NCBI RefSeq assembly: GCF_001583495.1
Contig: NZ_LQAQ01000063.1
Span: forward strand, 62,001 to 126,000
Length of the DNA: 64,000 nt
From: Flammeovirga sp. SJP92
GTDB lineage: Bacteria; Bacteroidota; Bacteroidia; Cytophagales; Flammeovirgaceae
Direction: 5' to 3'
A model generated the notes under the pieces. It did not search any database, was not told the DNA's origin, and saw nothing but the letters and a program-made list of their open reading frames with translations. This document shows, piece after piece, positions 31,532 to 52,033 of this stretch (position 1 is its first letter; each line of letters starts with the position of its first letter). The position numbers and the translations under genes were made by a program.

Positions 31532-33895
31532 TTATTGATACTTTTTCATCTCACTTACCTTAAACATTTCAAACTGATCAGCAATCATCAATTTAAAATC
31601 TCCTTTTTCTACCGTTTTCTTCAAATCTGCCCCAACAAAAGCAAGTTCATCAGCTCTTAGTTTAAAATTAACTACTTTTGATTCTCCAGGCTTTAAGTTG
31701 ATTTTTTTAAACTTTCTCAAACGTTTATTATCTGGAGTTATAGAAGCATAAAGGTCTTTTACATAAAGCTGAACTACCTCTTTTCCTTCAACATCACCCG
31801 TGTTTTTTACTTTCACCTGAACATTAACACTTTCATCTGGATCGATCTCTTTTTTAGAAAGTAATAATTCAGAATACTCGAAAGTAGTATAACTTAAACC
31901 AAACCCAAATGGAAATTGGAAAGGTAAAGAAGAATTGTAATCGTACATACCTTGCATTTTTTCTTGTGCTTCAGAAGGCTTATGGTCATAAGTTCCCAAT
32001 GCATTAGGGTACATAGGATAAGAGTAAGGTAATTTTCCACTCGGGTTGTTTTCTCCTATTAGAATACTTGCTAAAGCATCGCCTCCAAAATTACCAGGTA
32101 GATAAGTTTGAACAATAGCATTCATTTTCATATTAAACTGAGAGATCAACCTAGGACGTCCTTCATTTAGTATTAAAATTACAGGTTTTCCTGTTGCAGC
32201 CATCGCTTCTGCTAATGCTCTCTGGTTTTGAGAAATATACAGGTCATGCAAATTCCCTACTGATTCTGTATATGAATTTTCACCTAAGCAAAGAAGAATT
32301 ACATCATTTGACTTTGCTGCATCAACAGCTGCTTCTATATCAATATTCATTTCTTCAAAATATTGACCATAATGATTGTATTCTACACCTGCCACAAAAG
32401 TGACTTTATCATGTCCAAATTTGTTTTTTACTGCGTCAAATATGGTATTATAACCCTGAGCAAATTGCTCTACCTTTTCACCCTGCCAAGAGTAAGTCCA
32501 ACCTCCATTCAATGTACGCATAGAGTTTGCATTGGGACCTGTCACTAAAATTTTCGCTCCTCTTTTCAATGGCAGTAAGTCTTCTTCATTTTTCAATAAA
32601 GTGATGGATTCTACAGCCGCATCATACGCTACTTTTTCATGATCTTTACTTCCAAAATCAGGGTACTCTTCCACTTTTGGATATGGTGTCTCAAATAAAC
32701 CTAGATTGATTTTCAACTTAAGTATACGTTGTACTGCATCATCAATTCTATTAATTGACACTTCCCCTTCATTGACTAGATCAATCAAGTGAGTTGTAAA
32801 ATTGAAATCATAAGGAATCATAGACATATCAATACCTGCATTAATTGCTTTTTTTACAGCTTCTTTGTGAGTATCAGCAATTTTATCACGGTTATGTAAG
32901 TTCTGAATATCAGCCCAGTCCGTTACCACTACCCCTTTGAAACCTAATTCACTACGAAGCAACGTAGTCAATAAATTAAAATCAGCGTGAGCAGGTGTAC
33001 CATTAATGATTCCTGAATTGATCATTATGGTTTGTGCTCCTGCATCAATTGCAGCTTTGTAAGAAGGTAAATAATGTTCTCTCAATTCTATCTCAGGTAA
33101 ATAAGAAGGAGTTCTATCTTTTCCTGACTTTTCAGATCCATACCCTACAAAATGCTTAATACATGATGCTACTTTATTAGGGTTACTTAAGTCATTATTT
33201 ACACCTTCATAGCCATTAATTGCTGCTACTCCCATTTGAGAAGTGAGATAAACATCTTCACCATAGGTTTCCCATAAACGTGGCCAAGTCGAACTTCTGC
33301 CCATGTCCAATACTGGAGAAAAATTCCAAGGAATTGAGCTTGCTCTAGTTTCATAGGCAGTGATTTCCGCTCCTCTCTGAACCAGTTCAGGGTTCCAAGT
33401 TGCTGCCATTCCTATTTGCTGTGGAAAAAACGTTGCTCCTTCTGTATAAGTAGTTCCATGAATGGCATCTACACCATACAAAACAGGTATTCCTATTTCT
33501 TTTAATGAGACCTGCTGAATTTGTTTGATGACCTCATTCCATTTTTCTCTTGATCTTGCTCTATTGTTTGCAGTGTTTAAAACAGAACCAATTTTATACT
33601 TTACAATCGCTTCTTCTAATTTCTTTTGGTCCAGCGTTATTGGCTCATCACTGACATATACATTTTCACCTTTTGTAATCACATCTAACGTGATTTGGGC
33701 CATCTGCCCAACTTTTTCTTCAAGTGTTAATTTCTGAAGGATTTTTTCTGCCTTTTTATCTACAGATATTCTACTATTAATTATTTCTGAGATAGCTTTT
33801 TCCTTCCTTTCTTCTTCTGATTTAAAAGATGTCACACTCCAGAAACAACATATAATTAAGATGCTAATAAAGGGAAGTTTCAGTTTTTTCATCAT
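31532..33895 (-). CDS. Glycoside hydrolase family 3 beta-glucosidase
   Basis: 787 residues. Signal peptide (about 1-24) without a clear lipobox, so probably periplasmic. The GH3 N-terminal TIM barrel (about 55-395) has VDAIHGTTYTEGATFFPQQIG, SPVLDMGRSSTWPRLWETYGED, KHFVGYG and GVVVTDWADI (about residues 322-331), whose Asp is the expected nucleophile. The GH3 C-terminal alpha/beta sandwich (about 425-640) and a fibronectin-III-like domain (about 690-770, VQVKVKNTGDVEGKEVVQLYV) follow. Architecture matches BglX. In this locus it would release glucose from short beta-1,3-gluco-oligosaccharides after import; linkage preference is inferred. 81 bp downstream of susD. ATG at 33895 and 33892 are adjacent; either may be used. 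Confidence 0.92.
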   Translation of the reverse strand: MMKKLKLPFISILIICCFWSVTSFKSEEERKEKAISEIINSRISVDKKAEKILQKLTLEEKVGQMAQITLDVITKGENVYVSDEPITLDQKKLEEAIVKYKIGSVLNTANNRARSREKWNEVIKQIQQVSLKEIGIPVLYGVDAIHGTTYTEGATFFPQQIGMAATWNPELVQRGAEITAYETRASSIPWNFSPVLDMGRSSTWPRLWETYGEDVYLTSQMGVAAINGYEGVNNDLSNPNKVASCIKHFVGYGSEKSGKDRTPSYLPEIELREHYLPSYKAAIDAGAQTIMINSGIINGTPAHADFNLLTTLLRSELGFKGVVVTDWADIQNLHNRDKIADTHKEAVKKAINAGIDMSMIPYDFNFTTHLIDLVNEGEVSINRIDDAVQRILKLKINLGLFETPYPKVEEYPDFGSKDHEKVAYDAAVESITLLKNEEDLLPLKRGAKILVTGPNANSMRTLNGGWTYSWQGEKVEQFAQGYNTIFDAVKNKFGHDKVTFVAGVEYNHYGQYFEEMNIDIEAAVDAAKSNDVILLCLGENSYTESVGNLHDLYISQNQRALAEAMAATGKPVILILNEGRPRLISQFNMKMNAIVQTYLPGNFGGDALASILIGENNPSGKLPYSYPMYPNALGTYDHKPSEAQEKMQGMYDYNSSLPFQFPFGFGLSYTTFEYSELLLSKKEIDPDESVNVQVKVKNTGDVEGKEVVQLYVKDLYASITPDNKRLRKFKKINLKPGESKVVNFKLRADELAFVGADLKKTVEKGDFKLMIADQFEMFKVSEMKKYQ

Positions 33896-33976: not shown

Positions 33977-35623
33977 TTAATTATATCCTTCATTTTGTTT
34001 TAGAGCTGAATGCAAGTCCAGTTCATATTGAGGAATTGGTAGGAAGCCTTTTTTAGATAGATCAAATGTCACTTCAAAAATGGATGGATCGCCATTTTGA
34101 GAAACATCACCTGTAAAATTATATCCTGCTTTATTGATATACTTTTCATCCGTATCTGTAGGAGGGACCAATTGATAATTTGAAACTGTCAATTCTTTAT
34201 CTGCTTCCGCTAAACCTCTTCTTAAAACATCAAAGTAACGATGTCCTTCAAAGGCCAATTCCACTCGACGTTCATGCTGAATATCTTCTAGAGTAACACT
34301 TGAAAGAGAACCTAAGCCCGCTCTTTCTCTGATGATATTTACATATTCTGTTGCCTTACCATTGTTGGTATCAACATATAATTCTGCTGCTAACAAATAA
34401 ATGTCTGCAAGACGTAGATAATGATAATTCTGCCCCCAGTTCAAAGGTGTCTCTGCACTTGCTTTATTCCAGAAGTGAGTAGTGTACTTGTTAGAATGCA
34501 TAGATGTGAACTGGTAATTCATTTCATAAGTTTTACCTGTAAGATCAATTAAATCTTTAGCGTAAACAATGGTAGCAGGCTTTCTTATATCTCCTTCTTC
34601 AAACTGTGCTTCTAGTTCTCTTGAGGGAGCAAACAATCCCCACCCAGGAGCCAAGCGGTTACTTGAATGTTCTCTAGGCCCAGACATTTGACAATAAATA
34701 CTTCCAAATGACCAGTCTCCCCAGTGGCCCGAACCTGTATTTACGAAAGTGATTTCGAAGATGGCCTCTTTTGAAAAATTGCCATTCTCATTAAATAAAT
34801 CAGCATAATTTTCTTCCAACTTATAGTTACCACTATTGATAATTTGTTCTGCGTAATCAATGATAGCTTCTTTTGTAATAGGATTACTCCCTGCCACAGG
34901 TAAACTTTGCTGATTATAATATCCAGTGTAAAACATATATACCTTTACCAATTCGGCCATTGCGGCGTATTTAGTAAGTTGCCCATCAAATTCAGGTTCT
35001 ACTTTATCAGTCATAAATGCAATGCCTGTCAAAATATCTTTTGAAATTTGAGCATATACCTCTTTAGGGTCTGCTTGTGTAATGGAAGTCCATGAATCAC
35101 CTTCAAGAGGCTCAAGAATCAATGGAATATTTTCGAAATAACGTACTAATTCAAAATAAAAATGTGCACGTAGAAAAGTTGCTTCCCCTCGGATAGTCTG
35201 CTTCAGATTGCCATCTTTAGCAACGAAATTAATCTGATCATAATTGGCAAGCAAAGTATTGGCTCTCTGAATCGCTCCATAACATTTACTCCATGCAGCC
35301 AAAGCAGTTGATGAATTTGTAAATGCCTTAAAATTGCTCATTCGTTGTAAAGTAAGCATATCATTACCATCTGGGGACCCTCCAATATGAGCATCATCTC
35401 CTAATGCTGCTTCCATAATTGGGTTACTGTTTGGAACAGTATTATTATAATCTGATCTCAATTTTTCATATACTCCAAACAGGGCTTGCTGTGCTTCTTT
35501 TGAAGTAGAAAAATAAGTTCCCGCCGTTTGTGATTGCGTTGGATTTACATCCAAGACACTGTGACATGAAGTTACCGACATTACTGTTGCTACACCGGCA
35601 ATTAATATATTTTTAAGTCTCAT
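33977..35623 (-). CDS. SusD/RagB-family outer-membrane glycan-binding lipoprotein
   Basis: 548 residues. Lipoprotein signal (VTSC near residue 20) then the SusD-typical start HSVLDVNPTQSQTAGTYFST. The N-terminal TPR-rich half includes ALFGVYEKLRSDY, IRGEATFLRAHFYFELVRYFE and AKVYMFYTGYY-like helices. The C-terminal half ends with NWGQNYHYLRLADIYLLAAELY, the ERAGL and HERRVELAFEGHRYFDVLRRG motifs and a final FLPIPQYELD. These are diagnostic for SusD. It caps the adjacent SusC barrel (11-bp gap) and captures glycan at the surface. Predicted ligand beta-1,3-glucan from the linked GH16/GH128 enzymes. Confidence 0.93.
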   Translation of the reverse strand: MRLKNILIAGVATVMSVTSCHSVLDVNPTQSQTAGTYFSTSKEAQQALFGVYEKLRSDYNNTVPNSNPIMEAALGDDAHIGGSPDGNDMLTLQRMSNFKAFTNSSTALAAWSKCYGAIQRANTLLANYDQINFVAKDGNLKQTIRGEATFLRAHFYFELVRYFENIPLILEPLEGDSWTSITQADPKEVYAQISKDILTGIAFMTDKVEPEFDGQLTKYAAMAELVKVYMFYTGYYNQQSLPVAGSNPITKEAIIDYAEQIINSGNYKLEENYADLFNENGNFSKEAIFEITFVNTGSGHWGDWSFGSIYCQMSGPREHSSNRLAPGWGLFAPSRELEAQFEEGDIRKPATIVYAKDLIDLTGKTYEMNYQFTSMHSNKYTTHFWNKASAETPLNWGQNYHYLRLADIYLLAAELYVDTNNGKATEYVNIIRERAGLGSLSSVTLEDIQHERRVELAFEGHRYFDVLRRGLAEADKELTVSNYQLVPPTDTDEKYINKAGYNFTGDVSQNGDPSIFEVTFDLSKKGFLPIPQYELDLHSALKQNEGYN

Positions 35624-35634
35624 GATTCGATTTG

Positions 35635-38600
35635 TTAGAAAGAAATATTTAATCCTAATAAGTACGATTTAGCCTGTGGATATGAACCATAATCATAACC
35701 TGTCCAGATACCGCCATGACCAACTTCTGGGTCCATTCCTGAGTATTCTGTGAAAGTCAATAAATTATTGCCTGACACATAAACTCTAAGCTTGCTCATT
35801 CCTAATGCATTACTCAATCGTTGTGGCATAGTATATCCAATCTGTATGTTTCTAAGACGTAAATAAGAAGCATCTTCCACATGTACCATATCATTTAGAC
35901 GAATGAAGTTTCTATTGTTATCCTCGTAAGAGAAAATAGGGAAATTGTTTGTTGAGCCTTCACCTGTCCATCTATCTAGATAACGTATAGGGTAATTCTG
36001 TGCTTTAGTAAGGTCGATTCGCTGATTACCGTTGATCAATTTCCCTCCTGCTTGACCTTGCCAAAACATGGCAAAATCAAAACCTTTATATTCCATTCGT
36101 ATATTCAAACCATACATCCATGAATGAACGGGTGATCCAATATTTGTTCTGTCATCATTATCAATAACACCATCTCCATTCAAGTCTACAAAACGGATAT
36201 CACCAGGTACTGCTTTATCATTACCGTCTTTGTTGAACATTTCATTATAAGCATCTGCTTCAGCTTGGTTTTGAAGAATTCCATCTGTTTTCCATCCAAA
36301 GTAAAACGGCATAGCATGACCTTCTTGAATCATAAGCTGTCCTTCTCCAAAGTGCATAGATGGACCTGTAAACCTGCCGTCTTCATTCGCCACTTCAACC
36401 ATTTTATTATCATTGTATGCAAAGTTTCCTGTGATATCATATGTAAATTCGCCCTTACGTTTGGAATATGTCAATGCAACTTCAATACCTTGATTATTTA
36501 CTGTACCTAAGTTGAAAATAGGTCCTCCCACACCTGTAAAAGCAGGTACAGGCTTAGTACCTAAAAGGTCTTTTCTTTGACGTGAATAAAGGTCTATTGA
36601 AGCAGTTAATGCATCGTTGAAGAAACCTGCGTCAATACCCATATTTATCTCTTCGGCAGTCTCCCACTTCAAGTTAGGGTTCGGCATTCTAGTAATACCA
36701 TAACCTGGGTTCAAGCTTTGATTTTCTCCGTTACCATAAGAATATGGTGGAGTTTGATCAAATAACTCTAGATAACCAAAATCTCCAATTCTCTCATTAC
36801 CTACTCTACCCCATGATGCTCTTAGTTTTAAAAAGTTCACTGTCTCGTTATACTTTAAGAAATTCTCTTGTGAAAGAATCCAACCTGCCTGTACTGAAGG
36901 GAAAAAACCGAATTTATTGGCTGCACCAAACCTTGATGAACCATCATATCGGGCAATTACTGAAAGTAAATACTTTTCTTTATAATCATATGATGCTCTA
37001 CCAAAGTAAGAGACTAAACCATGCTGTGCCATACCACCACCAGCTCCTTGTGTTCTATCAGCTGTACCATTGTTTACCCATGCATAATCCCAACCATTGA
37101 TCTGCATATTTGTTCTTGAAGAAGAATTGTCTTCAGACTCCCAAGTTCTTACAGTATTTCCTGCTAAAAAGCTCAATTTATGGTCATTGATTTTTTTACT
37201 ATATGAAATAATATTCTCCCATTGTAATGTAGTATAAGTACCTTGATATTGGTTTACTCTTGATGCATCTGCATAAGTCACATTATTATAATACGCTTCA
37301 GGCGAATAACCTCTGCCATACCAGTTTCCTACATCTACTCCCAAGTCTGTTTTAATAGATAAACCTTCAATACCTGGTGTTAATTCCAAAAACATGTTCC
37401 CTATAAACTTGTTATTCTTATTCTCCCCATAGGTATTTTCAATACTTGCTAACGGATTAACTATCTCACGTAATGATCTATCTGATATGCCATAGAAGTC
37501 ACCATTACTATTTCTCACTGGCAAAACATCCATGTTCTCATATTGCTCAATTTTAGAAGGGTCAGTTTCTAATACAGGAGTAAGAGGATCATGCAATAGA
37601 GCATTTTGTAAAACACTACCAAACTGATTGTTTTCATTAATTCCTTGAGATTCTTCCCTTACAAAACTCATATTTGTACCTATTTTGAAATACTCAGAAA
37701 CTTTATGGGAAGCATTTAGACGGACAGTGAAACGTTCAAATTTAGATTTTTCAGGTGCAACAATTCCTTCTTGACCAAAGTAACCAATACTAGTCATATA
37801 GTTTGATTTAGCTGATCCTCCTGAAAACTGTAAGTTATGGCTTTGAATTGGTGCTGGCTCGAATATTTCTCCCTGCCAATCTGTATCAATTGTATTGTTT
37901 AGAATTTGATCCTCAGAAAATGGTAATAATGCACCTCCATTCTTTGCTCCCTCGTTATGGAATTCCATATACTGTTGAGCATTCATCACTGGTACTTTTC
38001 TCCAAGCCTCCTGAATACCATAATAACCATCATAAGAGACTGTACTTACACCTTCTTTTCCTTTTTTGGTCGTTACTAATACAACACCGTTAGCTCCTCT
38101 TGAACCATAAATAGCAGATGAAGCCGCATCTTTTAGTACTTCAATAGATTCAATATCTGCAGGGTTCAAGAAATTGATATTATCAATCTGAATTCCATCT
38201 ACCACATACAAAGGAGTATTATCTCCATTTGACCCTGTACCTCTCACCCTAATATCAATACCTGCACCAGGCTGGCCTGAAACTGGAGTTACTAATACGC
38301 CCGGCGTTTTTCCTTGTAAAGATTGTGCAGCATTTTGTACTGGTACCTGTGTAATATCTTCTGATTTTACTGAAGCAATGGCTCCCGTTACTACACTTTT
38401 CTTCTGAACTTGATAACCTACTACAATCACTTCGTCAAGTTGTTCTACATCCTCCTCCAAACTCACATTGATAGTCGATTGGTTATTGATGGCTACTGTC
38501 TTTTCTTTATATCCAATAAAAGAGAAAGACAGTTCAGTTTCTGAAGACTCAACAAGTAAACTAAAATTACCACTTAGATCAGTTATTGTTCCTTTTGTAA

Positions 38601-38745
38601 CACCTTTTACTTTTACGCTCACTCCCGGAATCGGGGCGTTTTGATTACTATCTACCACCTTACCCGTTACCATTCTAGATTGGGAAAAGGCTATATTGCT
38701 GATCAATAGTAAACTCAGAATTAGGAGTTTTTTCATTGTTTTCAT
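35635..38745 (-). CDS. SusC/RagA-family TonB-linked outer-membrane transporter
   Basis: 1036 residues from the ATG at 38745 (MKTMKKLLILS); another ATG three codons on is also possible. An upstream in-frame ATG at 38823 precedes a non-signal stretch and is rejected. Signal peptide (about 4-22), CarboxypepD_reg domain (about 26-105, GKVVDSNQNAPIPGVSVKVKG), SusC hallmark LDEVIVVGYQVQKK, plug domain (about 115-230, PLYVVDGIQIDNI and GSRGANGVVLVTTKKG), then a 22-strand barrel ending SYLLGLNISF. It imports glycan with SusD as lid. Located between a 7TM-DISM gene and susD. Start-to-stop spacing to susD is 11 bp, so they are coupled. Confidence 0.93.
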   Translation of the reverse strand: MKTMKKLLILSLLLISNIAFSQSRMVTGKVVDSNQNAPIPGVSVKVKGVTKGTITDLSGNFSLLVESSETELSFSFIGYKEKTVAINNQSTINVSLEEDVEQLDEVIVVGYQVQKKSVVTGAIASVKSEDITQVPVQNAAQSLQGKTPGVLVTPVSGQPGAGIDIRVRGTGSNGDNTPLYVVDGIQIDNINFLNPADIESIEVLKDAASSAIYGSRGANGVVLVTTKKGKEGVSTVSYDGYYGIQEAWRKVPVMNAQQYMEFHNEGAKNGGALLPFSEDQILNNTIDTDWQGEIFEPAPIQSHNLQFSGGSAKSNYMTSIGYFGQEGIVAPEKSKFERFTVRLNASHKVSEYFKIGTNMSFVREESQGINENNQFGSVLQNALLHDPLTPVLETDPSKIEQYENMDVLPVRNSNGDFYGISDRSLREIVNPLASIENTYGENKNNKFIGNMFLELTPGIEGLSIKTDLGVDVGNWYGRGYSPEAYYNNVTYADASRVNQYQGTYTTLQWENIISYSKKINDHKLSFLAGNTVRTWESEDNSSSRTNMQINGWDYAWVNNGTADRTQGAGGGMAQHGLVSYFGRASYDYKEKYLLSVIARYDGSSRFGAANKFGFFPSVQAGWILSQENFLKYNETVNFLKLRASWGRVGNERIGDFGYLELFDQTPPYSYGNGENQSLNPGYGITRMPNPNLKWETAEEINMGIDAGFFNDALTASIDLYSRQRKDLLGTKPVPAFTGVGGPIFNLGTVNNQGIEVALTYSKRKGEFTYDITGNFAYNDNKMVEVANEDGRFTGPSMHFGEGQLMIQEGHAMPFYFGWKTDGILQNQAEADAYNEMFNKDGNDKAVPGDIRFVDLNGDGVIDNDDRTNIGSPVHSWMYGLNIRMEYKGFDFAMFWQGQAGGKLINGNQRIDLTKAQNYPIRYLDRWTGEGSTNNFPIFSYEDNNRNFIRLNDMVHVEDASYLRLRNIQIGYTMPQRLSNALGMSKLRVYVSGNNLLTFTEYSGMDPEVGHGGIWTGYDYGSYPQAKSYLLGLNISF

Positions 38746-38839
38746 TTGTATTAAATATTCATCTAAAAAATTTAGCTTTTGAAGCCTATTTGTTTTTTGA
38801 AGAGGCGTAAGTATATATTCCATCCTATTAGATGAAGGA

Positions 38840-40075
38840 CTAGAATACTAACTTTTCCACCTTTTTATTTTTCTCTGTAATGACATTGCTGTTTTCTATT
38901 TTGAATTGATAGCAACCAATCAATATTGTAATGACTAATACTAAAAGGTGATATGAATTCTGGCTAAAGAAGTCTCCTATAGAGGTTACATTTTCTCTCA
39001 TTATTTCATATATCAATGTGATGAACAATAAGAGACAAGAAACCATATCGGACTTATTTAATATCTTTTGAAAGTAGTTGTAAAATGAGAGTAATAGCAC
39101 GATGACAACGATGGGCAACACGATAAAATATTGCCTCCATATATTTTCTAGAAAATTGTTCTCAACCCCTTGGTAACCTAAAGCAATAACACACCACAAT
39201 AGAATAATATGCTGAGTTTTAACTTTCTTATAATTGCATTGATATAAATGAGGTATGATTGTGAGAATTAAGGCAATATGTAAAATCACAAAAAGATTAC
39301 GAATCAGTAAAATGTATTTGAAGTCAGCATCAAACCAAAACTGAAAAAGATAAATGTTGCTTGATAAAAAAAGAATCAGAATACCCATCAAAAATAGTAT
39401 AAATGATGTTTTCTTTCTATCAAGAAAAAGTACCCATGCCAATGCTACAAGGAACAGTATTCCCAAAATTCCATATTTTACACCTATCAAAAAATGGTGC
39501 TCATTATTTTCTTGAAAAAAGATATTATCACGTTGTAATTCGAAAGAAAGTTCATTGTTATGAGCATTCATAAAATGAAGATATAAATCAACTATAGTAT
39601 GGTCTTCTACATCATTAAGTTTTTCTAATGAAAAAACTGTTGGCTTTGTAAACGGTGAAGAATAAAAAGCATCTGCCTTGGTAAGGTAGGTTATAAAAAA
39701 AGTAGAGTCGCTTTGTGTTTTTCCATAAACTTCTAAATCTGAATGATTGTTCTTCAACTCAAAAAGCCAATGTCGTTTGTTTAAAAATGAAGTTTTCAGT
39801 GAGATTTTAGCCCAGTATTCTTCATTGTTTCTTAATGATTTTTCTTTTGAATAGGTCTGAAAGTTCTTTGAATATTCTCCTATCACTTCTTTTAAAGTAG
39901 AAGAAGTACTTGATGTAAATAATGCGATTTCCTGATCAGCTACTTTATATTGATCAGCAAAAGAAGAAGGATGAACTACTTCATTTCTTTGCTTTCCAAC
40001 TGTACAAAGGGGAAATAATAAAACAATAGTATAAAATATATTAAGTTTAAAAATTAGATTCATCCTTCTCTTCAT
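38840..40075 (-). CDS. 7TM-DISM membrane protein lacking an output domain
   Basis: 411 residues. N-terminal hydrophobic signal (about 8-26), an extracytoplasmic beta domain like 7TMR-DISM extracellular 2 (about 40-185, EYWAKISLKTSFLNKRHWLFELKN), then seven predicted helices (about 193-215, 220-240, 255-275, 285-302, 315-335, 345-362, 372-390). It ends with only about 20 charged residues. Ordinary family members continue with a kinase, cyclase or HTH; none is present here, and the reading frame stops cleanly. It lies inside the glucan locus between the F5/8C giant and susC, all in one orientation. A sensor that signals through another membrane protein, such as the regulator at 28618, is a hypothesis only. 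ATG at 40075 or 40063 may be used. Confidence 0.72.
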   Translation of the reverse strand: MKRRMNLIFKLNIFYTIVLLFPLCTVGKQRNEVVHPSSFADQYKVADQEIALFTSSTSSTLKEVIGEYSKNFQTYSKEKSLRNNEEYWAKISLKTSFLNKRHWLFELKNNHSDLEVYGKTQSDSTFFITYLTKADAFYSSPFTKPTVFSLEKLNDVEDHTIVDLYLHFMNAHNNELSFELQRDNIFFQENNEHHFLIGVKYGILGILFLVALAWVLFLDRKKTSFILFLMGILILFLSSNIYLFQFWFDADFKYILLIRNLFVILHIALILTIIPHLYQCNYKKVKTQHIILLWCVIALGYQGVENNFLENIWRQYFIVLPIVVIVLLLSFYNYFQKILNKSDMVSCLLLFITLIYEIMRENVTSIGDFFSQNSYHLLVLVITILIGCYQFKIENSNVITEKNKKVEKLVF

Positions 40076-40239: not shown

Positions 40240-43200
40240 TTACCTCTTCTGGATTTTTGCCGAATAAAATTGACCATTGGCTTTGTATCTGATCAAATAG
40301 AACCCTGCCTGCAAATCTGAAAGATTAAATTCCTTTTGCATTACTCTGTATTCTTTCAACAGTTTGCCTTCTATTGTGAAGATCATCAATTGAGAAATTG
40401 TACCATCAACTTTCAATGTATTGATCACAGGGTTAGGGAAGAAAGTGATTGAGACTTTTTCATAGATCCCGTTAGATAATACAATCGACCATTTCGCATA
40501 AAGGGTAATATCTTCAGAATTAGTGATCGTAATTTCCTCAATTCTATTTTCAAAACCTTCATCCAAGAACCATCCATCAAATATATATCCTTCTCTTACA
40601 GCTGACTGTAATGCTACTACATCACCATCAATAACTGTAGCAGGATTACTATGCTCAAAACCTTCTACATAGTTAATTGTATTTATTCTTAACCACTTAC
40701 CGTAAATTTTCATATCACCTGTTGAAGAGGCTGTAATTGATGTGATTTGATTTGAGAACTCCACATCTGTGAACCACCCACCAAATACATAACCTTCCCT
40801 GATTGCATCTGTTAATACAAATTCATCACCACCATCATAACGCAAGGGGTTAGTATGTTCAAATCCATCGACATAATTGATTTCAAAAATTCCAGGAAAA
40901 TTACCTTCTGCCTTTTTGCCATACACTTCAAACTGATAGAACTTAAAACCCCAATCTTCAATGAACCTCTTTACGCCCTGAACTCTAACAAACCGAGCAG
41001 TACCTTGTAACGTTAATTGGTGTTTCAGATCGTTTTCAATTACATGTCCTACTTGAGTATGTATAGTAGACCAAGTTTCTAGATCTGAAGAAACCTGGAT
41101 TTGGTATTCTTCTGCAAAAGCACCTTCCCACTGAATGATAATTCTTTCAATATCATAGTAACCCAACAGATCTACATACCACCAGTCTGTAGTATTATCT
41201 GCTACATTTGACTCAAATAAAGAAGAATAATCTCCGTCATTACCTCTACTAGCTTCACCAGCTCCAGCATATGATGGTTTATCCAGAGATAACAAACCTG
41301 GAGCACTTGGATCTTTCTCCCACTTTGCATAAAGTGTTAATTCTCCACTCATTGTAGCTGTAATTTCTGTAATTGGAGAGGTAAATTCACTATCAAGAAA
41401 CCATCCTTTGAAAAGATAATCCATACGGCTTGGGTCTTTTAATACAAAACCTTTTCCTTCGGTATAACTATTTGGATTCTCATTAGTAAAAGCATCTACA
41501 TATGACACCGTATACACTTCAGGCCCTTGATCAATAGAGAGTGTACCCATCACCTCTATTTCAAATAAACTATAACCATAGCCTGTGCCTCTCTTAATTC
41601 CCTTTACTTTTACAAATCTACCGGCACCCGCAACAGGGTGATTTACCAAACCAACTTTCCCATTCTTCTCACTATGGATTACTGTCCAAGCTTCACCATC
41701 TTCTGATACTTCCAAATTGTATTCTTTACCAAAAGCACCTTCCCACATAAGGTTAATCTGTCCAATATCATAGCGTTTTACAAGATCAATTGATATCCAC
41801 TCTTCATCCGTACCATTACTTTCCCATCTGGTATCCATATCACCATCTACAGCTCCTTCACCATTACCACTGCTTGTCTGTGTTTTTTTCTCTAACGCTA
41901 CATTTGTTGAAGTTTTTCCGGTGGCAGTCCACTTTGCAAACAATGTTAGCTCTCCTTTTGTGGAAGGTGTTATTTCTGTGATTGCAGTAGTATAAGCATC
42001 ATCAGTGTACCAACCTTCAAAGATGTAATCCAAACGAAGTGGATCTTCAAAAGTCAGTGTTGATCCTTCTTCGTAAAGACTTGGATTATTATGGAAATAA
42101 CCATCATTATAAGTGATTGAGTAACTATCTGGAACTTCAGCTGTAGACTCCTCTCCATAAACATTTACTTCATAGAATTTGAATCCATGAGGTGTCGCTC
42201 TCTCATTACCTAATATTCTCACATATTTACCAGTGCCATGTACATTGAAGATGTGTTCTAATTTTAGTTGACCGTTATTTTCTACAACAGGTTCAGTTTG
42301 ATGATGAATAGTAGTCCAAAGCTCCCCGTTATTGGATACTTGTATTTCATAGTTGCTCGCATAAGCTCCTTCCCAATAAATCGCTACTCTTTCAATATCA
42401 TAATTACCTTGAAGATCTACATACCACCAATCTGTACTTGTATCCTCTAGGTTAGACTCCATAATACTTTCATAATCTCCATCATTTCCAAATGAAGCAT
42501 CTCCAGCTCCTGATATTGACGGTTTATTTAGTGAAATTAAAACAGGAGCATTGGGATCTATTTCCCATTTTGCATATAATGTCAAATGCTCTGTTGAAGT
42601 AGCTGTAATCTCTATGATCTGATTTGTCAATTCAGCATCTAAAAACCAACCTTTAAAAAGATAGTCTAGTCTAACTGCATCTAGTAATGTTACTGTACTA
42701 CCTTCGACATATGTGGAAGGGTTTGAATGTATGTAAGCATCAGTATAAGTTATAGTATAAACAGCAGGACCTTGATTTTCTGACTCTTCTCCATACACTT
42801 CAAACTCCCAAAAACTATAACCAAAACCAGTACCTCTTTCAATACCTTTCATTCTCACAAAACGTCCCGAACCTATCACTTCATGCAAATTAACACCAAC
42901 TTGACCATCAGTTTCATGATGAATAACTGTCCAGTTTTGAGCATCATTTGAAATCTCTATATCATATATTTTTCCAAAAGCTCCTTCCCAATTAAGCACT
43001 ACTGATGTGATATCATATGTTTTTTCTAAATCAATATATAACCACTCTGTATCACCTAAAGCACTCTCCCACCTTGTCTCTAAATCTCCATCTACTGCCA
43101 AATCTCCCTCACCAGAACTTGAAGCAGTTGATTTACCTAAAGCGACATTTACGGGTACTCCTTCTGATAAAGTCCATTTGCCGTAAAGTGTTAAATCTCC

Positions 43201-44475
43201 TGTTGTTTCTTCTGTAATTACAGTTACTTGAGTAGTGTATGTATCCTCTAAATACCAACCATTAAAATCATAATTCTGACGAGTTGCATCTGATAAAGTC
43301 AATTCTGTCCCTTCAGTATATGAAGAAGGGTTATCATGAGCGAAACCATCAATAAACCTAATATTTGAAACTGTAGGACCTTGTTCATCAGATAAAGTAC
43401 CATATACCTCAAACTCATACAAACTAAACCCATAACCTGTTGCCCTGGTGAAACCATTCATTCTCACAAATCGCCCTGTTCCTGTAAGTGTTATTTCTTC
43501 TATACCTCCTACACCTTCAGTTTGTGAAAAGGTAACAGTCCAATTTTGAGCATCATCAGATACTTCTATATCATAGGTATCACCATAAGCTCCTTCCCAA
43601 TTCAATACTACTTGTGTGATATCGTATCTTTGTCCCAAATCAACGTATATCCATTGATTATCTTCATGAGAACTCTCCCACCTTGAGCCTAAATCACCAT
43701 CTACTGCGGCATTACCATCTCCGGAGCTTGCGGTAGCTGGTTGGTTCAATGCTAAATTGATAGGTACTCCTTCTGATAAAGTCCATTTACCGTAAAGTGT
43801 TATATCACCTGTTGTTTCTTCTGTAATTACAGTTACTTGAGTGCTATAATTATCTTCCAGGTACCAACCTAAAAAATCATAATTATTACGTGAAGCATCC
43901 TGCAATGTTAATCCTTCACCTTCTGTATAATTCAAGGGATTATCATGTGTATATCCATCGATATAATTAATGCTTGAAATAGTTGGCCCCTGTACTTCTG
44001 ATAGCGTACCATATACTTCTAGTTCCCACAAACTGAACCCATAAGAAGTCGCTCTTGTAAAGCCGTTCATTCTTACAAAACGACCAGAAGCAGTAATTGG
44101 AAGATCTTCTATACCACCTGCTCCATCTGTTTGTGAAAAAGCAATAGACCAACTTTGGCCATCATCTGACACCTCAATATCATATGTTTTACCGAAAGCT
44201 CCTTCCCAGTTCAATACTACTTGAGTGATATCATACCTCTGCCCCAAATCAACAGAAATCCATTGATTATCCTCATGAGCACTTTCCCACCTTGAACCTG
44301 TATTACCATCTACGGCTGCATTAGCGTCACCTGAACTTGAAGAAGCAGATTTGTTGAGAGCAATATTCTCACTTGTCAGCTTGATTGATTTTGTACTGAA
44401 ATTACTGTTGGCATTTACAGTATTCCAGCCCAAAAAGAGCATAGTGAGCAATACAAAAAATGTATTTTTTCGCAT
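40240..44475 (-). CDS. Giant non-catalytic surface protein: six F5/8C and seven InlB-type repeats, T9SS tail
   Basis: 1411 residues. Signal peptide (1-22, TVNAN). Then six discoidin-like (F5/8 type C, CBM32-related) domains, each followed by a Listeria-Bacteroides InlB_B-type repeat of about 65 residues ending in (L)Y(A/G)KW, plus a seventh InlB repeat. Domains 1, 2, 3 and 5 are one subtype (AAVDGDxxSRWES ... VVLNWEGAFG); domains 4 and 6 are another (GNDGDYxSxxES ... DWWYVDL), giving the order A-A-A-B-A-B. The C-terminus (about 1335-1411) is a T9SS type A sorting domain with FFPNPVINTLKV and GFYLIRYKANGQ. No glycosidase, lyase or sulfatase domain is present. Its position among beta-1,3-glucan genes suggests a long surface glycan tether or adhesin. 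Ligand unproven. Confidence 0.82.
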   Translation of the reverse strand: MRKNTFFVLLTMLFLGWNTVNANSNFSTKSIKLTSENIALNKSASSSSGDANAAVDGNTGSRWESAHEDNQWISVDLGQRYDITQVVLNWEGAFGKTYDIEVSDDGQSWSIAFSQTDGAGGIEDLPITASGRFVRMNGFTRATSYGFSLWELEVYGTLSEVQGPTISSINYIDGYTHDNPLNYTEGEGLTLQDASRNNYDFLGWYLEDNYSTQVTVITEETTGDITLYGKWTLSEGVPINLALNQPATASSGDGNAAVDGDLGSRWESSHEDNQWIYVDLGQRYDITQVVLNWEGAYGDTYDIEVSDDAQNWTVTFSQTEGVGGIEEITLTGTGRFVRMNGFTRATGYGFSLYEFEVYGTLSDEQGPTVSNIRFIDGFAHDNPSSYTEGTELTLSDATRQNYDFNGWYLEDTYTTQVTVITEETTGDLTLYGKWTLSEGVPVNVALGKSTASSSGEGDLAVDGDLETRWESALGDTEWLYIDLEKTYDITSVVLNWEGAFGKIYDIEISNDAQNWTVIHHETDGQVGVNLHEVIGSGRFVRMKGIERGTGFGYSFWEFEVYGEESENQGPAVYTITYTDAYIHSNPSTYVEGSTVTLLDAVRLDYLFKGWFLDAELTNQIIEITATSTEHLTLYAKWEIDPNAPVLISLNKPSISGAGDASFGNDGDYESIMESNLEDTSTDWWYVDLQGNYDIERVAIYWEGAYASNYEIQVSNNGELWTTIHHQTEPVVENNGQLKLEHIFNVHGTGKYVRILGNERATPHGFKFYEVNVYGEESTAEVPDSYSITYNDGYFHNNPSLYEEGSTLTFEDPLRLDYIFEGWYTDDAYTTAITEITPSTKGELTLFAKWTATGKTSTNVALEKKTQTSSGNGEGAVDGDMDTRWESNGTDEEWISIDLVKRYDIGQINLMWEGAFGKEYNLEVSEDGEAWTVIHSEKNGKVGLVNHPVAGAGRFVKVKGIKRGTGYGYSLFEIEVMGTLSIDQGPEVYTVSYVDAFTNENPNSYTEGKGFVLKDPSRMDYLFKGWFLDSEFTSPITEITATMSGELTLYAKWEKDPSAPGLLSLDKPSYAGAGEASRGNDGDYSSLFESNVADNTTDWWYVDLLGYYDIERIIIQWEGAFAEEYQIQVSSDLETWSTIHTQVGHVIENDLKHQLTLQGTARFVRVQGVKRFIEDWGFKFYQFEVYGKKAEGNFPGIFEINYVDGFEHTNPLRYDGGDEFVLTDAIREGYVFGGWFTDVEFSNQITSITASSTGDMKIYGKWLRINTINYVEGFEHSNPATVIDGDVVALQSAVREGYIFDGWFLDEGFENRIEEITITNSEDITLYAKWSIVLSNGIYEKVSITFFPNPVINTLKVDGTISQLMIFTIEGKLLKEYRVMQKEFNLSDLQAGFYLIRYKANGQFYSAKIQKR

Positions 44476-44759: not shown

Positions 44760-46055
44760 TTAATTATTAAAAAGAAGCCAGTTAATAGATATTGTACCTA
44801 CATTTTGTGTAAGTCGTATTGTATGTTTTCCTGCAGTTAACTGAACAGGAGTTGAATAAGTATTCCAAATAAAATTTTCAGATGTGTTAGTAATATCCAT
44901 GGTTACTGTTTCTACTCCATCTACTGCCATAATTAATTGTGCATCAATAAATGAAGCATACCTGATATCCAAGTTATATTCTCCTTCTTTGGGCACATAT
45001 AATTGATATTCTACCCATTGTCCTTTGAAAAAGTTATACAATTCTAATGTCTCATTTGGTGATTCAGTAGTTCTTCTTACACATGGACCATTTGTCCAAC
45101 CTGCTTCTCCCACTGATTCAGAAATACTCATATCACTGTAATGCTCCGCTTCAATTCTCTGACCTACGCCAAAATAGTTTTCTTTATCAAAAGAAGACAT
45201 TTGGTTGTAAACCATTCCAAGTTCAGTCAGTTGGACATCTGATGTTTGTTTTAATAAAAACATATATGGAAAAGTATCCTCAGACCCTCCTCCTCTTGGT
45301 ATAAACCATGCATAACGGTATACATCTGGATCGCTTTCTAAATAATTCAAGGCATCAGACATATATCTTAATTGACTTTCAGGTGTAACATTCCCTTCCC
45401 AAGCACAAAACTCTGTCAACCAAATAGGCATATTGTATTTTTTAAACATTTCAACGTACCTTTTTAAAGCTGCTACACTTGTCATATAACAATGAATGGA
45501 AATGCCTTCAATACCATGATCTGGTACTAATTCAAAAAATTCATCCAACCATTTAATCGGATCATGATATCCCTCCAATGTGCCATAATTCATGGCCGGT
45601 GAAATGATCTTCAAGTTCAATTCCTCTGCAATTGCTTTTACATCTCCCCATCTTTCCGCCGCTTGTTGAGGCGTCATGTTTGCCTGATCAGTTAAATTTG
45701 GTTCATTGAACGCTAATAAGTATTTGACATCAGGATTCTTTTGAACGTATGCTCTTATTTGATCTGCATTGACACCATTCCACGCCATAGGGCAAAACTC
45801 TATATTCTGTTCTTTGGTCAATGGAATGAATTTATCATATTGTAATGGACTCCAATTGTAGGACCATGAAATACCTTCACCCAACACTGTCACATCATCC
45901 TCATATTTAAAAGCAAAAGAAACTCCTCTTTTCTCACTTCTTTTTTGAAAACCTTCTACCACAGGCAAGTCCTCATCCTCTCCAATAATGTTATCATCAT
46001 TGTTCTGCATACAAGCAGTGAAAATGAACAAAAATAAAATTAAATTGTATTTCAT
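44760..46055 (-). CDS. GH128 endo-beta-1,3-glucanase lipoprotein with CBM6
   Basis: 431 residues from the ATG at 46055, 1 bp after the GH16 stop; an ATG four codons upstream (46067) would overlap GH16. Lipoprotein signal (FTAC). The catalytic TIM barrel (about 40-290) shows GH128 features: RGVSFAFKYEDD, WSYNW, FNEPNL with the predicted acid/base Glu118, and IWLTEFCAWEG with the predicted nucleophile Glu215. A C-terminal beta-sandwich (about 298-431; IEAEHYSDM, GQWVEYQLYVP, GKHTIRLTQ) is a CBM6-type carbohydrate-binding module. GH128 enzymes characterised so far act on beta-1,3-glucan. Surface lipoprotein, probably co-transcribed with GH16. Confidence 0.85.
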   Translation of the reverse strand: MKYNLILFLFIFTACMQNNDDNIIGEDEDLPVVEGFQKRSEKRGVSFAFKYEDDVTVLGEGISWSYNWSPLQYDKFIPLTKEQNIEFCPMAWNGVNADQIRAYVQKNPDVKYLLAFNEPNLTDQANMTPQQAAERWGDVKAIAEELNLKIISPAMNYGTLEGYHDPIKWLDEFFELVPDHGIEGISIHCYMTSVAALKRYVEMFKKYNMPIWLTEFCAWEGNVTPESQLRYMSDALNYLESDPDVYRYAWFIPRGGGSEDTFPYMFLLKQTSDVQLTELGMVYNQMSSFDKENYFGVGQRIEAEHYSDMSISESVGEAGWTNGPCVRRTTESPNETLELYNFFKGQWVEYQLYVPKEGEYNLDIRYASFIDAQLIMAVDGVETVTMDITNTSENFIWNTYSTPVQLTAGKHTIRLTQNVGTISINWLLFNN

Positions 46056-46056
46056 A

Positions 46057-47118
46057 TTACTCAACATCTTTTAATTGGTACACTCTTACATAATCTACTT
46101 CATATAAAACAGGAGCTTCAAAGATGGTATCATCTATACCCATAGCTCCTCCCCATGCTCCACCAACAGCTAAATTCAGGATGAAGAAAAACTCCTTATT
46201 GAATGGCCAGTCTCCTGCTTCTTGAATTTGTTTTGTCTCTGCAAATGTTTTAGTTAACTTTCCATCAACATATATATGTATACGATCATAACCCATAAAC
46301 TCATTTTCAACCCACTCCATAGTAAACGTATGAAAATCGTTAGATACTTCTTCGTCAAAAACTTGCTTGCCATGTACATTCTGCCCATTCATACCGTTTT
46401 TATTTTTGGTATGTAAAGCACAATGAAAAGTATTGGGCTCAAACCCTACATGTTCCATGATATCAATCTCTCCTGCTTCAGGCCAATGACCATACCCCAA
46501 CATCCAGAATGCCGGCCATGTACCTCTTCCTCCAGGTACTTTAAGTCGAGCTTCAACTTTCCCATACCTGAAATCTCTTTTATCTTTTGTGATGATTCTA
46601 GCGGAAGTATACTCTCTTCCTTCATATTGTTCTTTTCTCGCTTCAATGGTTAGTATACCATCTTTCACTCTAATATTCTCAGGTCTGTCAGTATAGTATT
46701 GTAATTCCTGGTTTCCACCTCCCCATCCATTTACTTCGTAGGTCCAGTTATCAAGGTTCAGTTCATCACCATCGAACTCATCTTGCCAAACCAATTCATA
46801 AGCTCTTTCCGGTACTGTAATTGTACAAGTGGCTACCTCATCTCCAATAATCACAGAAATAGTAGTTGTTCCACTTTGATGTGCTGTAACCACACCATGA
46901 AACACAGTAGCAATAAACTCATCATCTGTTGTCCAAACAACCTCTTCATCGGATTGTGGAGCACTTAATATTGTAATTTTGTCTGATTGCCCTACATTAA
47001 TTGTCAAGGCAGTATTTGATAGCTGTAATTCTTTTTTTTCTTCCTCTGTTAGGGAAGAAGTTTCCGAGGCACAAGCAAAGAAGGATAATGAAATCAGAAG
47101 AAGTAATAATTTTTTCAT
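46057..47118 (-). CDS. GH16 laminarinase lipoprotein with N-terminal BIG_2 domain
   Basis: 353 residues. Lipoprotein signal (FFAC at about 13-16). Bacterial Ig-like BIG_2 domain (about 33-105, LTINVGQSDKITI ... TTISVIIGDEVATCTITV). GH16 catalytic domain (about 108-350) opens with LVWQDEFDGDELNLDNWTYE and carries the active-site EIDIMEHVG (Glu217 nucleophile, Asp219, Glu222 acid/base). The extra Met between Asp and Glu is the beta-bulge form found in laminarinases. The WPAFWMLG and DYVRVYQ motifs complete the fold. It would cut beta-1,3-glucan chains at the cell surface. Start-stop arrangement with GH128 (1 bp) implies coupling. Confidence 0.93.
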   Translation of the reverse strand: MKKLLLLLISLSFFACASETSSLTEEEKKELQLSNTALTINVGQSDKITILSAPQSDEEVVWTTDDEFIATVFHGVVTAHQSGTTTISVIIGDEVATCTITVPERAYELVWQDEFDGDELNLDNWTYEVNGWGGGNQELQYYTDRPENIRVKDGILTIEARKEQYEGREYTSARIITKDKRDFRYGKVEARLKVPGGRGTWPAFWMLGYGHWPEAGEIDIMEHVGFEPNTFHCALHTKNKNGMNGQNVHGKQVFDEEVSNDFHTFTMEWVENEFMGYDRIHIYVDGKLTKTFAETKQIQEAGDWPFNKEFFFILNLAVGGAWGGAMGIDDTIFEAPVLYEVDYVRVYQLKDVE

Positions 47119-47227: not shown

Positions 47228-48211
47228 TTATTTTTTCTTATAGAAGAAAATGGCATCCATATCTACTGTATCACCAGAATTACCACCTGCTAAGAAGGCA
47301 AGAATGTTTACATCACTAAATGCTTGATTGTAGAATAAACCTTGCTCATGGAAGTAAGTAAGAGGAACATTGATTTCTTGCCACTCTCCGTTACGCTCAA
47401 AGTCACCATAAGGTGCTACTCCATCACCATCAGGTCCTGAACCTAATACCACTTTCGCTTCAGAAATACCGTCACCAAAAATCAACGTATAAACTGTTGA
47501 AGGGTTAGCACTTTTCATTGCAATGTGGAAGTAGTAATCTTCTGGAGCATTGAATAAAGGAGTCATATCTACTTCACCAAAACCAGGGCCTACATTATAA
47601 CCAGCACCTGACCATCCAGCACCACCAACGACTAAACTCATCCAACCTTCATCTAAATCAAAATAGTTTTTTCCTACAGATTGTCCAGGTGTCAAAGTAC
47701 CATCCCAGATATAAAAATTCTTATCTACATCATCGGTACGTAAATCATAAGCTACTTTTGATTCGATTGTTTTAAATGCTGTCTCATCTAAAGAGATTAC
47801 ATAGTAGTCTTCTCCTTGTAATACTTCTGGTACAGGATCTAACCCTCCGCTTCCTTCGTCTTCATATACAGTTACTGCACATGTAGCTGTAAAAGTACCA
47901 TGAGAAGCTGCTACAGTCGCTGCCCCAACTTTAAGTGGTTGAATATCTCCATCAGCTACTGCTACTACTGATGGATCAGATGAACTCCATGAAATTGCTC
48001 CTGATACACCTTCAGGCTGCAAAGTCGCTTTTAAAGAAGCAGATGTACCTAATGCTACACTTAAAGTAGTTTGGTCTAACGTAATTCCTGTCACTTCTGG
48101 AGTTACTTCTTCTTCTTGTCCTCCAGTTTCATTGCTAGAACATGATACAAAAAATGATGTCCCTATTAAACCTAATAGAACAAATAATGCTGATCTAAAA
48201 TTAGTTGACAT
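47228..48211 (-). CDS. Putative surface glycan-binding lipoprotein with BIG_2 domain
   Basis: 327 residues. Lipoprotein signal (FFVSC, about 20-24) followed by an acidic SSNETGGQEEE linker of the surface-export kind. BIG_2 domain (about 38-118: VTGITLDQTTLSVALGTSASLKA ... AISWSSSDPSVVAVADG). A C-terminal beta-sandwich of about 190 residues (YVISLDETAFKTIESKVAYD ... DMDAIFFYKKK) resembles the C-terminal domain of surface glycan-binding proteins in laminarin loci of Bacteroidota. It has several exposed Trp (e.g. WDGTL, GWMSLVVGGAGWSG) but no catalytic residues recognised. It is the first gene of the leftward GH16/GH128 group. The binding function is inferred from architecture and place. Confidence 0.72.
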   Translation of the reverse strand: MSTNFRSALFVLLGLIGTSFFVSCSSNETGGQEEEVTPEVTGITLDQTTLSVALGTSASLKATLQPEGVSGAISWSSSDPSVVAVADGDIQPLKVGAATVAASHGTFTATCAVTVYEDEGSGGLDPVPEVLQGEDYYVISLDETAFKTIESKVAYDLRTDDVDKNFYIWDGTLTPGQSVGKNYFDLDEGWMSLVVGGAGWSGAGYNVGPGFGEVDMTPLFNAPEDYYFHIAMKSANPSTVYTLIFGDGISEAKVVLGSGPDGDGVAPYGDFERNGEWQEINVPLTYFHEQGLFYNQAFSDVNILAFLAGGNSGDTVDMDAIFFYKKK

Positions 48212-51927: not shown

Positions 51928-52033
51928 CGTTTTAGTTAAAGTTATTGAATTGGATTTATTAATGCCTGTTAGCAAAGGCAATTATTATATAGTTAGTAAA
52001 ATAGAATAATGATATTTCTTCAATAGCTGTGCA

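What the first reader, a model, noticed from the sequence alone, without database searches (positions are those of the whole stretch)
40240..44475. Giant T9SS-exported protein made only of glycan-binding-type and InlB-type repeats in a laminarin locus
Six F5/8C domains alternate with InlB_B-type repeats (seven in total) and end in a type IX sorting domain; no catalytic domain is present. The F5/8C domains fall into two sequence subtypes in the order A-A-A-B-A-B, so the protein may display two binding specificities on one rod. Co-orientation with GH16, GH128, GH3 and SusCD suggests it binds or tethers beta-1,3-glucan or algal cell walls. InlB_B repeats as regular spacers between discoidin domains is an arrangement I do not recognise from described PUL proteins.
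Basis: partly seen in the sequence, partly recalled or inferred. Interest (0 to 1): 0.75.

Follow-up and report, generated by a model that had tools for sequence, protein, structure and literature searches.

The report
Surface glucan-binding rod in laminarin locus
A bacterial gene cluster of the kind used to eat the algal sugar laminarin also encodes a long, enzyme-free protein of alternating sugar-binding-type and spacer-type domains that probably grips glucan at the cell surface; two related genomes have the cluster without it, so it looks like an optional helper.

Summary
The 1411-aa minus-strand ORF has six F5/8C domains, seven InlB-type (List_Bact_rpt) repeats, a type A T9SS tail and no catalytic domain. 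The order A-A-A-B-A-B is confirmed. It lies in a nine-gene beta-1,3-glucan-type PUL. New here: (1) G012, another genus of the family, has GH16-GH128-giant in the same order, but its giant carries an unrelated ~118-aa module in place of the later F5/8C domains. (2) Same-genus G005 keeps the PUL and GH128 but only scraps of the giant gene; G004 lacks GH128 and giant and has a strongly diverged PUL allele. (3) All eight F5/8C domains of the two giants form one supported set; type B lies inside it on a long branch, and B4 and B6 alone of 60 aligned domains lack a conserved Arg. Nearest solved domains are Paenibacillus glucanase/chitosanase discoidin modules. Best reading: an optional, T9SS-displayed multivalent glucan-binding rod that works like a PUL surface glycan-binding protein without being a lipoprotein. 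Binding, induction and the role of type B are untested.

The parts
40240..44475 (-). Giant protein, 1411 aa: signal-peptide-like start, A1-I1-A2-I2-A3-I3-B4-I4-A5-I5-B6-I6-I7, T9SS tail
   Evidence: signal peptide judged by eye
43981..44367 (-). F5/8C type A, domain A1
43777..43980 (-). InlB-type repeat I1
43372..43758 (-). F5/8C type A, domain A2
43168..43371 (-). InlB-type repeat I2
42763..43152 (-). F5/8C type A, domain A3
42559..42762 (-). InlB-type repeat I3
42127..42546 (-). F5/8C type B, domain B4
41923..42126 (-). InlB-type repeat I4
41518..41907 (-). F5/8C type A, domain A5
41314..41517 (-). InlB-type repeat I5
40891..41301 (-). F5/8C type B, domain B6
40687..40890 (-). InlB-type repeat I6
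40483..40686 (-). InlB-type repeat I7
40243..40440 (-). T9SS type A sorting domain
   Evidence: both over curated cut-offs
44760..46067 (-). GH128 (Glyco_hydro_cc) with CBM6/35-like C-terminus, lipoprotein-like start
46057..47118 (-). Big_2 + GH16, laminarinase-like, lipoprotein-like start
47228..48211 (-). Big_2 protein with lipoprotein-like start, possible surface glycan-binding protein
   Evidence: function inferred
38840..40075 (-). 411-aa membrane protein, weak 7TMR-DISM resemblance below cut-offs
35635..38823 (-). SusC-type TonB-dependent transporter
33977..35623 (-). SusD-type protein
31532..33895 (-). GH3 glucosidase-like enzyme
28618..31293 (-). 891-aa regulator with Y_Y_Y and LuxR-type HTH resemblance below cut-offs

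Best explanation
The ORF encodes an optional accessory of a beta-1,3-glucan-type PUL. Shown by sequence: the alternating F5/8C-InlB array, the T9SS tail, the PUL context and the same GH16-GH128-giant order in another genus. Inferred: T9SS exports the protein and fixes it on the surface or releases it; the four type A discoidin domains bind beta-glucan chains weakly one by one and strongly together; the InlB repeats hold them apart as a rod; the rod keeps large or insoluble glucan near the GH16 and GH128 lipoproteins, whose products pass to SusCD and GH3. Type B domains are type A relatives that diverged inside this protein, so a second ligand or a structural role is possible. The module-plus-InlB unit is the unit of duplication and exchange.
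Against: No binding, expression or localisation data. Discoidin domains bind many things, so ligand transfer by homology is weak. 12 of 24 scanned type A proteins had no catalytic, GSDH or lectin family, and GSDH (3) and GH2 with a glucosaminidase Ig domain (2) point away from beta-1,3-glucan. The solved relatives are described as chitosan-binding (titles). G005 and G004 have the PUL without the giant. InlB repeats may not be mere spacers: PMC10076258 (passages) reports phage-display clones eluted from dextran and laminarin that resemble Prevotella proteins with pectin esterase, Ig-like and divergent InlB domains. Model confidence is modest (pLDDT 68.9 and 62.0), so the rod geometry is not predicted.
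Confidence: 0.6

Rival explanations
1. Bridging adhesin: type A domains hold glucan while type B domains hold a different polymer (another algal wall glycan or the cell's own surface polysaccharide), so the rod mainly joins cell and particle.
For: B4 and B6 sit inside the giant-specific set on a branch of 1.41. They alone of 60 rows lack the conserved Arg, and lack the next Trp together with one other row, while W60 and E61 stay invariant in 60 of 60. B has extra loop residues.
Against: Loss of conserved residues may equally mean loss of binding. G012 has a giant without type B. The B loops could not be modelled (residues 7-37 under pLDDT 50).
Confidence: 0.2
2. General surface or adhesion protein that happens to lie in the PUL, with no role in glucan use.
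For: InlB-rich T9SS proteins occur elsewhere in this genome without a glucan enzyme domain (L031, BspA-type LRR plus InlB). The PUL occurs without the giant in two genomes.
Against: Same position after GH16 and GH128 in another genus; domain relatives sit on beta-glucan-active enzyme families.
Confidence: 0.12
3. Enzyme-holding scaffold: the rod binds the PUL enzymes or their accessory domains rather than glycan.
For: Many domains and no catalysis; discoidin domains can bind proteins (PMC2789033, introduction).
Against: No cohesin, dockerin or other docking family was reported for the giant or its GH16 and GH128 neighbours.
Confidence: 0.05

Closest known systems
Discoidin modules of Paenibacillus sp. 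IK-5 glucanase/chitosanase (PDB 4zxe, 4zy9, 4zz5, 4zz8, 2rv9, 2rva)
   Same: Same domain family and the best sequence match of both subtypes; about 40-44% identity to the A3 model in the structural rows
   Different: Modules of an enzyme, not a non-catalytic array; titled chitosan-binding; type B lacks the conserved Arg-Trp pair
[quoted passage not shown]
   Same: F5/8C domain tied to beta-1,3-glucan; experimental laminarin binding
   Different: Single domain at the end of a GH16 enzyme of a Gram-positive bacterium; I did not align its sequence
SGBP-B of Bacteroides beta-1,3-glucan utilization loci (PMC7157763, passages seen)
   Same: Non-SusD glycan-binding protein encoded with SusC, SusD, GH16 and GH3
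   Different: The giant has a T9SS tail and no lipobox seen by eye; it is an F5/8C-InlB array; PULs exist without it
G148 GSDH proteins with four F5/8C domains each and Big_7 spacers (L087)
   Same: T9SS-tailed, several type A F5/8C domains separated by Ig-like domains
   Different: Carry an N-terminal GSDH domain; spacer is Big_7, not InlB
G012 giant (L029:11715-15116)
   Same: Same PUL position, two type A-InlB units, further InlB repeats, T9SS tail
   Different: 1133 aa; three copies of an unrelated ~118-aa module in place of the later F5/8C domains; no type B

Membership tests
F5/8C discoidin domain (CBM32-type) | Sequence match to F5/8C models | tested here: met
   Six stretches, E 7.4e-113 and 1.2e-108; type B alone E 1.3e-16
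F5/8C discoidin domain (CBM32-type) | Discoidin beta-sandwich fold | tested here: met
F5/8C discoidin domain (CBM32-type) | Carbohydrate binding, needed for CBM32 | not testable with these tools
   No binding data
List_Bact_rpt / InlB B repeat | Match to TIGR02543 and PF09479 over cut-off | tested here: met
   Seven stretches in each
T9SS type A cargo | C-terminal sorting domain over cut-off | tested here: met
   TIGR04183 28.7 against 23 bits; PF18962 29.2 against 27
T9SS type A cargo | T9SS in the genome | tested here: met
   SprA, 2352.5 bits against 200; other components not searched
T9SS type A cargo | Export to the surface or medium | not testable with these tools
   Needs culture
[quoted passage not shown]
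[quoted passage not shown]
   No lipobox cysteine seen in the first 40 residues (read by eye; no predictor run); T9SS tail instead. So it is not filed as an SGBP-B
[quoted passage not shown]
   No binding data
Beta-1,3-glucan PUL | SusC/SusD with laminarinase-type GH16 and GH3 | tested here: met
Beta-1,3-glucan PUL | Induction by and growth on laminarin | not testable with these tools
   Needs culture
Cellulosome-type scaffoldin | Cohesin or dockerin domains | tested here: not met
   None among the Pfam families reported for the giant, GH128 and GH16 at E up to 0.01

The most novel reading that the evidence does not exclude
A modular, exchangeable surface rod: module-InlB units duplicate and are swapped as cassettes, and in this lineage duplicated glucan-binding discoidin domains evolved in place into a second recognition type, giving one T9SS protein that bridges beta-glucan and a second polymer. 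Relatives with and without it would make a ready test of what a non-catalytic T9SS rod adds to a PUL.
Probability: 0.22. Interest if true: 0.6.

Novelty: new variant of a known kind. Interest (0 to 1): 0.42.

Why it matters
If it binds glucan, it adds a T9SS-displayed, multivalent, enzyme-free binder to the parts of beta-1,3-glucan PULs, where binding is usually assigned to SusD and surface lipoproteins. The set of relatives (intact giant here, G012 giant with a different module, G005 remnant, G004 without) allows a direct test of whether such rods help capture particulate glucan. It also offers a traceable case of a binding module that changed near-invariant residues after duplication within one protein.

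Tried and rejected
The genome-contig scan with P0001 gave 12 loci: 10 of 12 bear Firmicutes-type names (my reading of the titles), 2 are unnamed MAGs; in 12 of 12 only the InlB model matched and neither the type A nor the type B model did, so they did not bear on the array.

The X module of G012 had no Pfam match over cut-off, one PDB match at E 0.084 and none in 395 class genomes, a search without a positive control. Repeats I6-I7 matched no PDB sequence at E up to 0.1. Foldseek's top rows for the four-domain model are two-discoidin proteins (neuropilins, factors V and VIII) at rmsd of 15 or more: shared single domains, not a shared arrangement.

The sigma-70 scan found 38 sites against 41.4 expected and 5 terminator-like sites against 4.1: no information. 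A structural comparison of binding faces was dropped because the B loops are under pLDDT 50.

A possible false lead: G001 has a unit match over query positions 2-191, but the InlB model finds no repeat in that ORF (L051), and the homologous G006 ORF (L050) has PKD domains after its F5/8C domain, so I did not count it as an F5/8C-InlB unit.

The labels E14, R31, E36 and E61 follow my recall of the Shinya 2016 paper, of which I saw only a reference entry; only the alignment columns are results. Rows of the 60-domain table were gathered with a type A model, so B-like relatives may be under-sampled; the type B model was not the best match in any ORF listed.
Full report
Observation. The ORF at 40240..44475 (-) is 1411 aa. 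Pfam finds six F5/8C stretches (E 7.4e-113 and 1.2e-108 for two models), seven List_Bact_rpt (InlB B-type) stretches (E 4.7e-71) and a sorting domain over its cut-off; no catalytic family reached its cut-off. NCBIfam gives seven TIGR02543 stretches and TIGR04183 at 28.7 bits against 23. Identity separates A1, A2, A3, A5 (51-77%) from B4, B6 (54% to each other, 33-44% to A), so the order A-A-A-B-A-B is right. A3/A5, I3/I5 and B4/B6 are 58, 59 and 54% identical, and A1/A2 and I1/I2 77 and 75%. I infer an older A-I-B-I duplication and a younger A-I one.

Locus. On the same strand, in order of transcription, lie a Big_2 lipoprotein-like protein, Big_2+GH16, GH128+CBM6/35, the giant, a 411-aa membrane protein, SusC, SusD, GH3 and an 891-aa regulator. 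Y_Y_Y, LuxR-type HTH and 7TMR-DISM matches are all below their cut-offs. GH16 is nearest to a solved laminarinase (3iln, E 3.3e-63); GH128 matches 8j3x over residues 42-434. The Big_2, GH16 and GH128 proteins have lipobox-like starts by eye; the giant does not. The M4 protease just upstream of the PUL (48781-51981) also has a T9SS tail. SprA is encoded in the genome. The gaps GH128-giant and giant-7TM are 284 and 164 bp. A TAnnTTTG motif (the Bacteroidota -7 consensus as I recall it) occurs in the 569-bp gap before the Big_2 gene and in none of the four other gaps tested, out of eight gaps in or before the PUL; no chance expectation was computed. One operon is plausible, not shown.

Relatives. 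P0001 has matches in 25 of 58 genomes at E up to 0.001, but only G012, another genus of the family, has a long one besides the own gene (E 1.2e-138, residues 36-643, 53% identity). Its 1133-aa protein reads A-I-A-I-X-I-X-I-X-I-I-T9SS. X is a ~118-aa module with no Pfam match over cut-off. The three X-InlB units are 88.8, 89.0 and 96.6% identical in DNA over 555 bases, which points to recent amplification. The G012 locus is a matching PUL: regulator, Big_2 protein, SusC, SusD, PKD protein, GH3, GH16, GH128, giant; it has no match to the 411-aa membrane protein.

Rarity. A search with the joined F5/8C-InlB unit gives matches in 11 of 18 family genomes at E up to 1e-25. Counted as true units are own six, G012 two and G005 one; a G001 match over positions 2-191 has no InlB repeat by the InlB model and is not counted. 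In 395 class genomes, own included, 8 have a match at E up to 1e-30, and outside the own genome none reaches past position 135 of 198. In 395 phylum genomes, own included, 37 match at E up to 1e-25, and outside the own genome none reaches past position 160. The two samples overlap, and at most 8 candidates per genome were scored. The G005 unit is the tail of a GH16 enzyme, A-I-I-T9SS.

Loss and exchange. Close GH128 orthologues are in own, G005 (80%) and G012 (64%); the other 8 of the 11 genomes with a match are far weaker (E 1e-16 to 1e-20). G005 has the same PUL with GH128 but about 300 bp where the giant should be. This stretch still matches the giant gene near residues 57-82 and 1319-1333, and the DNA after it. 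I read it as loss by deletion and decay. G004 has neither GH128 nor giant and no remnant was found in the stretch searched. Between own and G004 the PriA and CcoN-type genes differ at 13.5 and 7.9% of four-fold sites, the seven shared PUL genes at 42.9-59.7%. In 1-kb blocks, identity is 89-98% at 16-29 kb, 70-84% over the shared PUL parts, 79-86% at 49-55 kb and 92-99% at 55-59 kb; other stretches of the window (11-16 and 59-62 kb) also drop to 75-86%, so the diverged block is larger than the PUL and the divergence is patchy. With G005 the PriA gene itself differs at 55.0% of four-fold sites, CcoN at 12.2%. I read this as exchange of whole alleles between relatives; G004 is listed at 7% contamination, but its PUL and flanks lie on one contig. 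So a syntenic PUL exists without an intact giant in two of the same-genus genomes. Big_2 and GH16 relatives with a regulator, but no match to SusC, SusD, GH3 or giant, also occur at G000:C93 and G003:C116 in the 20-kb stretches read.

Type B. In a tree of 60 discoidin domains (6 window, 53 others, 1 PDB) the eight domains of the two giants are parted from the other 52 at 99/93, and B4+B6 (100/99) lie among the eight on a branch of 1.41; the fork parting the six window domains from the rest is weak (53/85), the root is for drawing and the bootstrap had not settled. At the column of Arg in the motif TRW, 58 of 60 rows have Arg, the exceptions being B4 and B6. At the next column 57 of 60 have Trp, the exceptions being B4, B6 and L066. 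W60 and E61 are invariant in 60 of 60. The rows were gathered with a type A model, which favours this pattern. By my reading of the spacing the changed Trp corresponds to LamA W1679, whose change to Ala lowered affinity for laminarin and chitin (PMC2789033); that paper does not regard substrate binding as the residue's primary function. Type B may bind otherwise, bind nothing, or be structural.

Model. Shown: architecture, locus, relatives, remnant and domain set. Inferred from the families: export by T9SS, avid glucan binding by the four A domains, InlB repeats as spacers, glucan held near GH16 and GH128 for uptake by SusCD. The AlphaFold models (pLDDT 68.9, pTM 0.45 for A3-I3-B4-I4; 62.0, 0.54 for B4-I4) do not fix the arrangement of domains. 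Against a pure spacer role, PMC10076258 (passages) describes phage-display clones eluted from dextran and laminarin that resemble Prevotella proteins with pectin esterase, Ig-like and divergent InlB domains; that paper says biochemical tests are still needed. In the Bacteroides locus of PMC7157763 (passages) an SGBP-B binds laminarin; the giant would work like it, but it is not filed there because it lacks the lipoprotein feature.

Literature. The search on laminarin, discoidin, InlB and glycoside hydrolase listed 6 papers, that on Listeria-Bacteroides repeat, InlB, T9SS and F5/8C wording 6 papers; none is, by title and abstract start, about discoidin-InlB arrays. A search with InlB B-repeat and CBM words listed 15 of 13,062 papers, none of the 15 with the InlB term. 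Listings on SGBP, T9SS and CBM32 (3 papers) and on GH128 laminarin PULs (15 of 99) showed no matching title. The library holds open-licence papers only, so this is weak evidence of absence.

Verdict. A real and, in the genomes sampled, rare architecture; a new variant of a known kind. The two-specificity idea stays open and is sharper: type B lies within the giant's own domain set and lacks otherwise near-invariant residues.

Noticed in passing
28618-55000: Against G004 this stretch, PUL included, is strongly diverged while PriA and CcoN-type genes on either side are nearly identical at four-fold sites: looks like exchange of whole alleles, though divergence in the window is patchy.
   Followed up: partly
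38840-40075: 411-aa membrane protein between the giant and SusC, weak 7TMR-DISM resemblance below cut-offs and no output domain; 57-58% identical in G004 and G005 where SusC is about 90%, and without a match in the G012 PUL.
   Followed up: partly
L029:11715-15116 (residues 428-545, 613-730, 798-915): Three near-identical copies of a ~118-aa module with two Cys near its ends and no Pfam match over cut-off, standing where the window's giant has F5/8C domains.
   Followed up: partly
L031:5682-9740: Own-genome 1352-aa T9SS protein with BspA-type LRRs and a long InlB array (10 Pfam stretches; 13 hits with my model).
   Followed up: no
L112:10685-15884: Second own cluster of Big_2 protein, GH16 and regulator related to those of the PUL (46-62% identity) but with no match to SusC, SusD, GH3 or giant in the 20 kb read; a similar cluster in G003 (L114).
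   Followed up: partly
L087:5623-16674: Two adjacent GSDH proteins of G148, each with four F5/8C domains, Big_7 domains and a T9SS tail.
   Followed up: no
48781-51981: M4 protease with GEVED, fn3 and T9SS tail just upstream of the PUL, also present beside it in G004 and G005.
   Followed up: no
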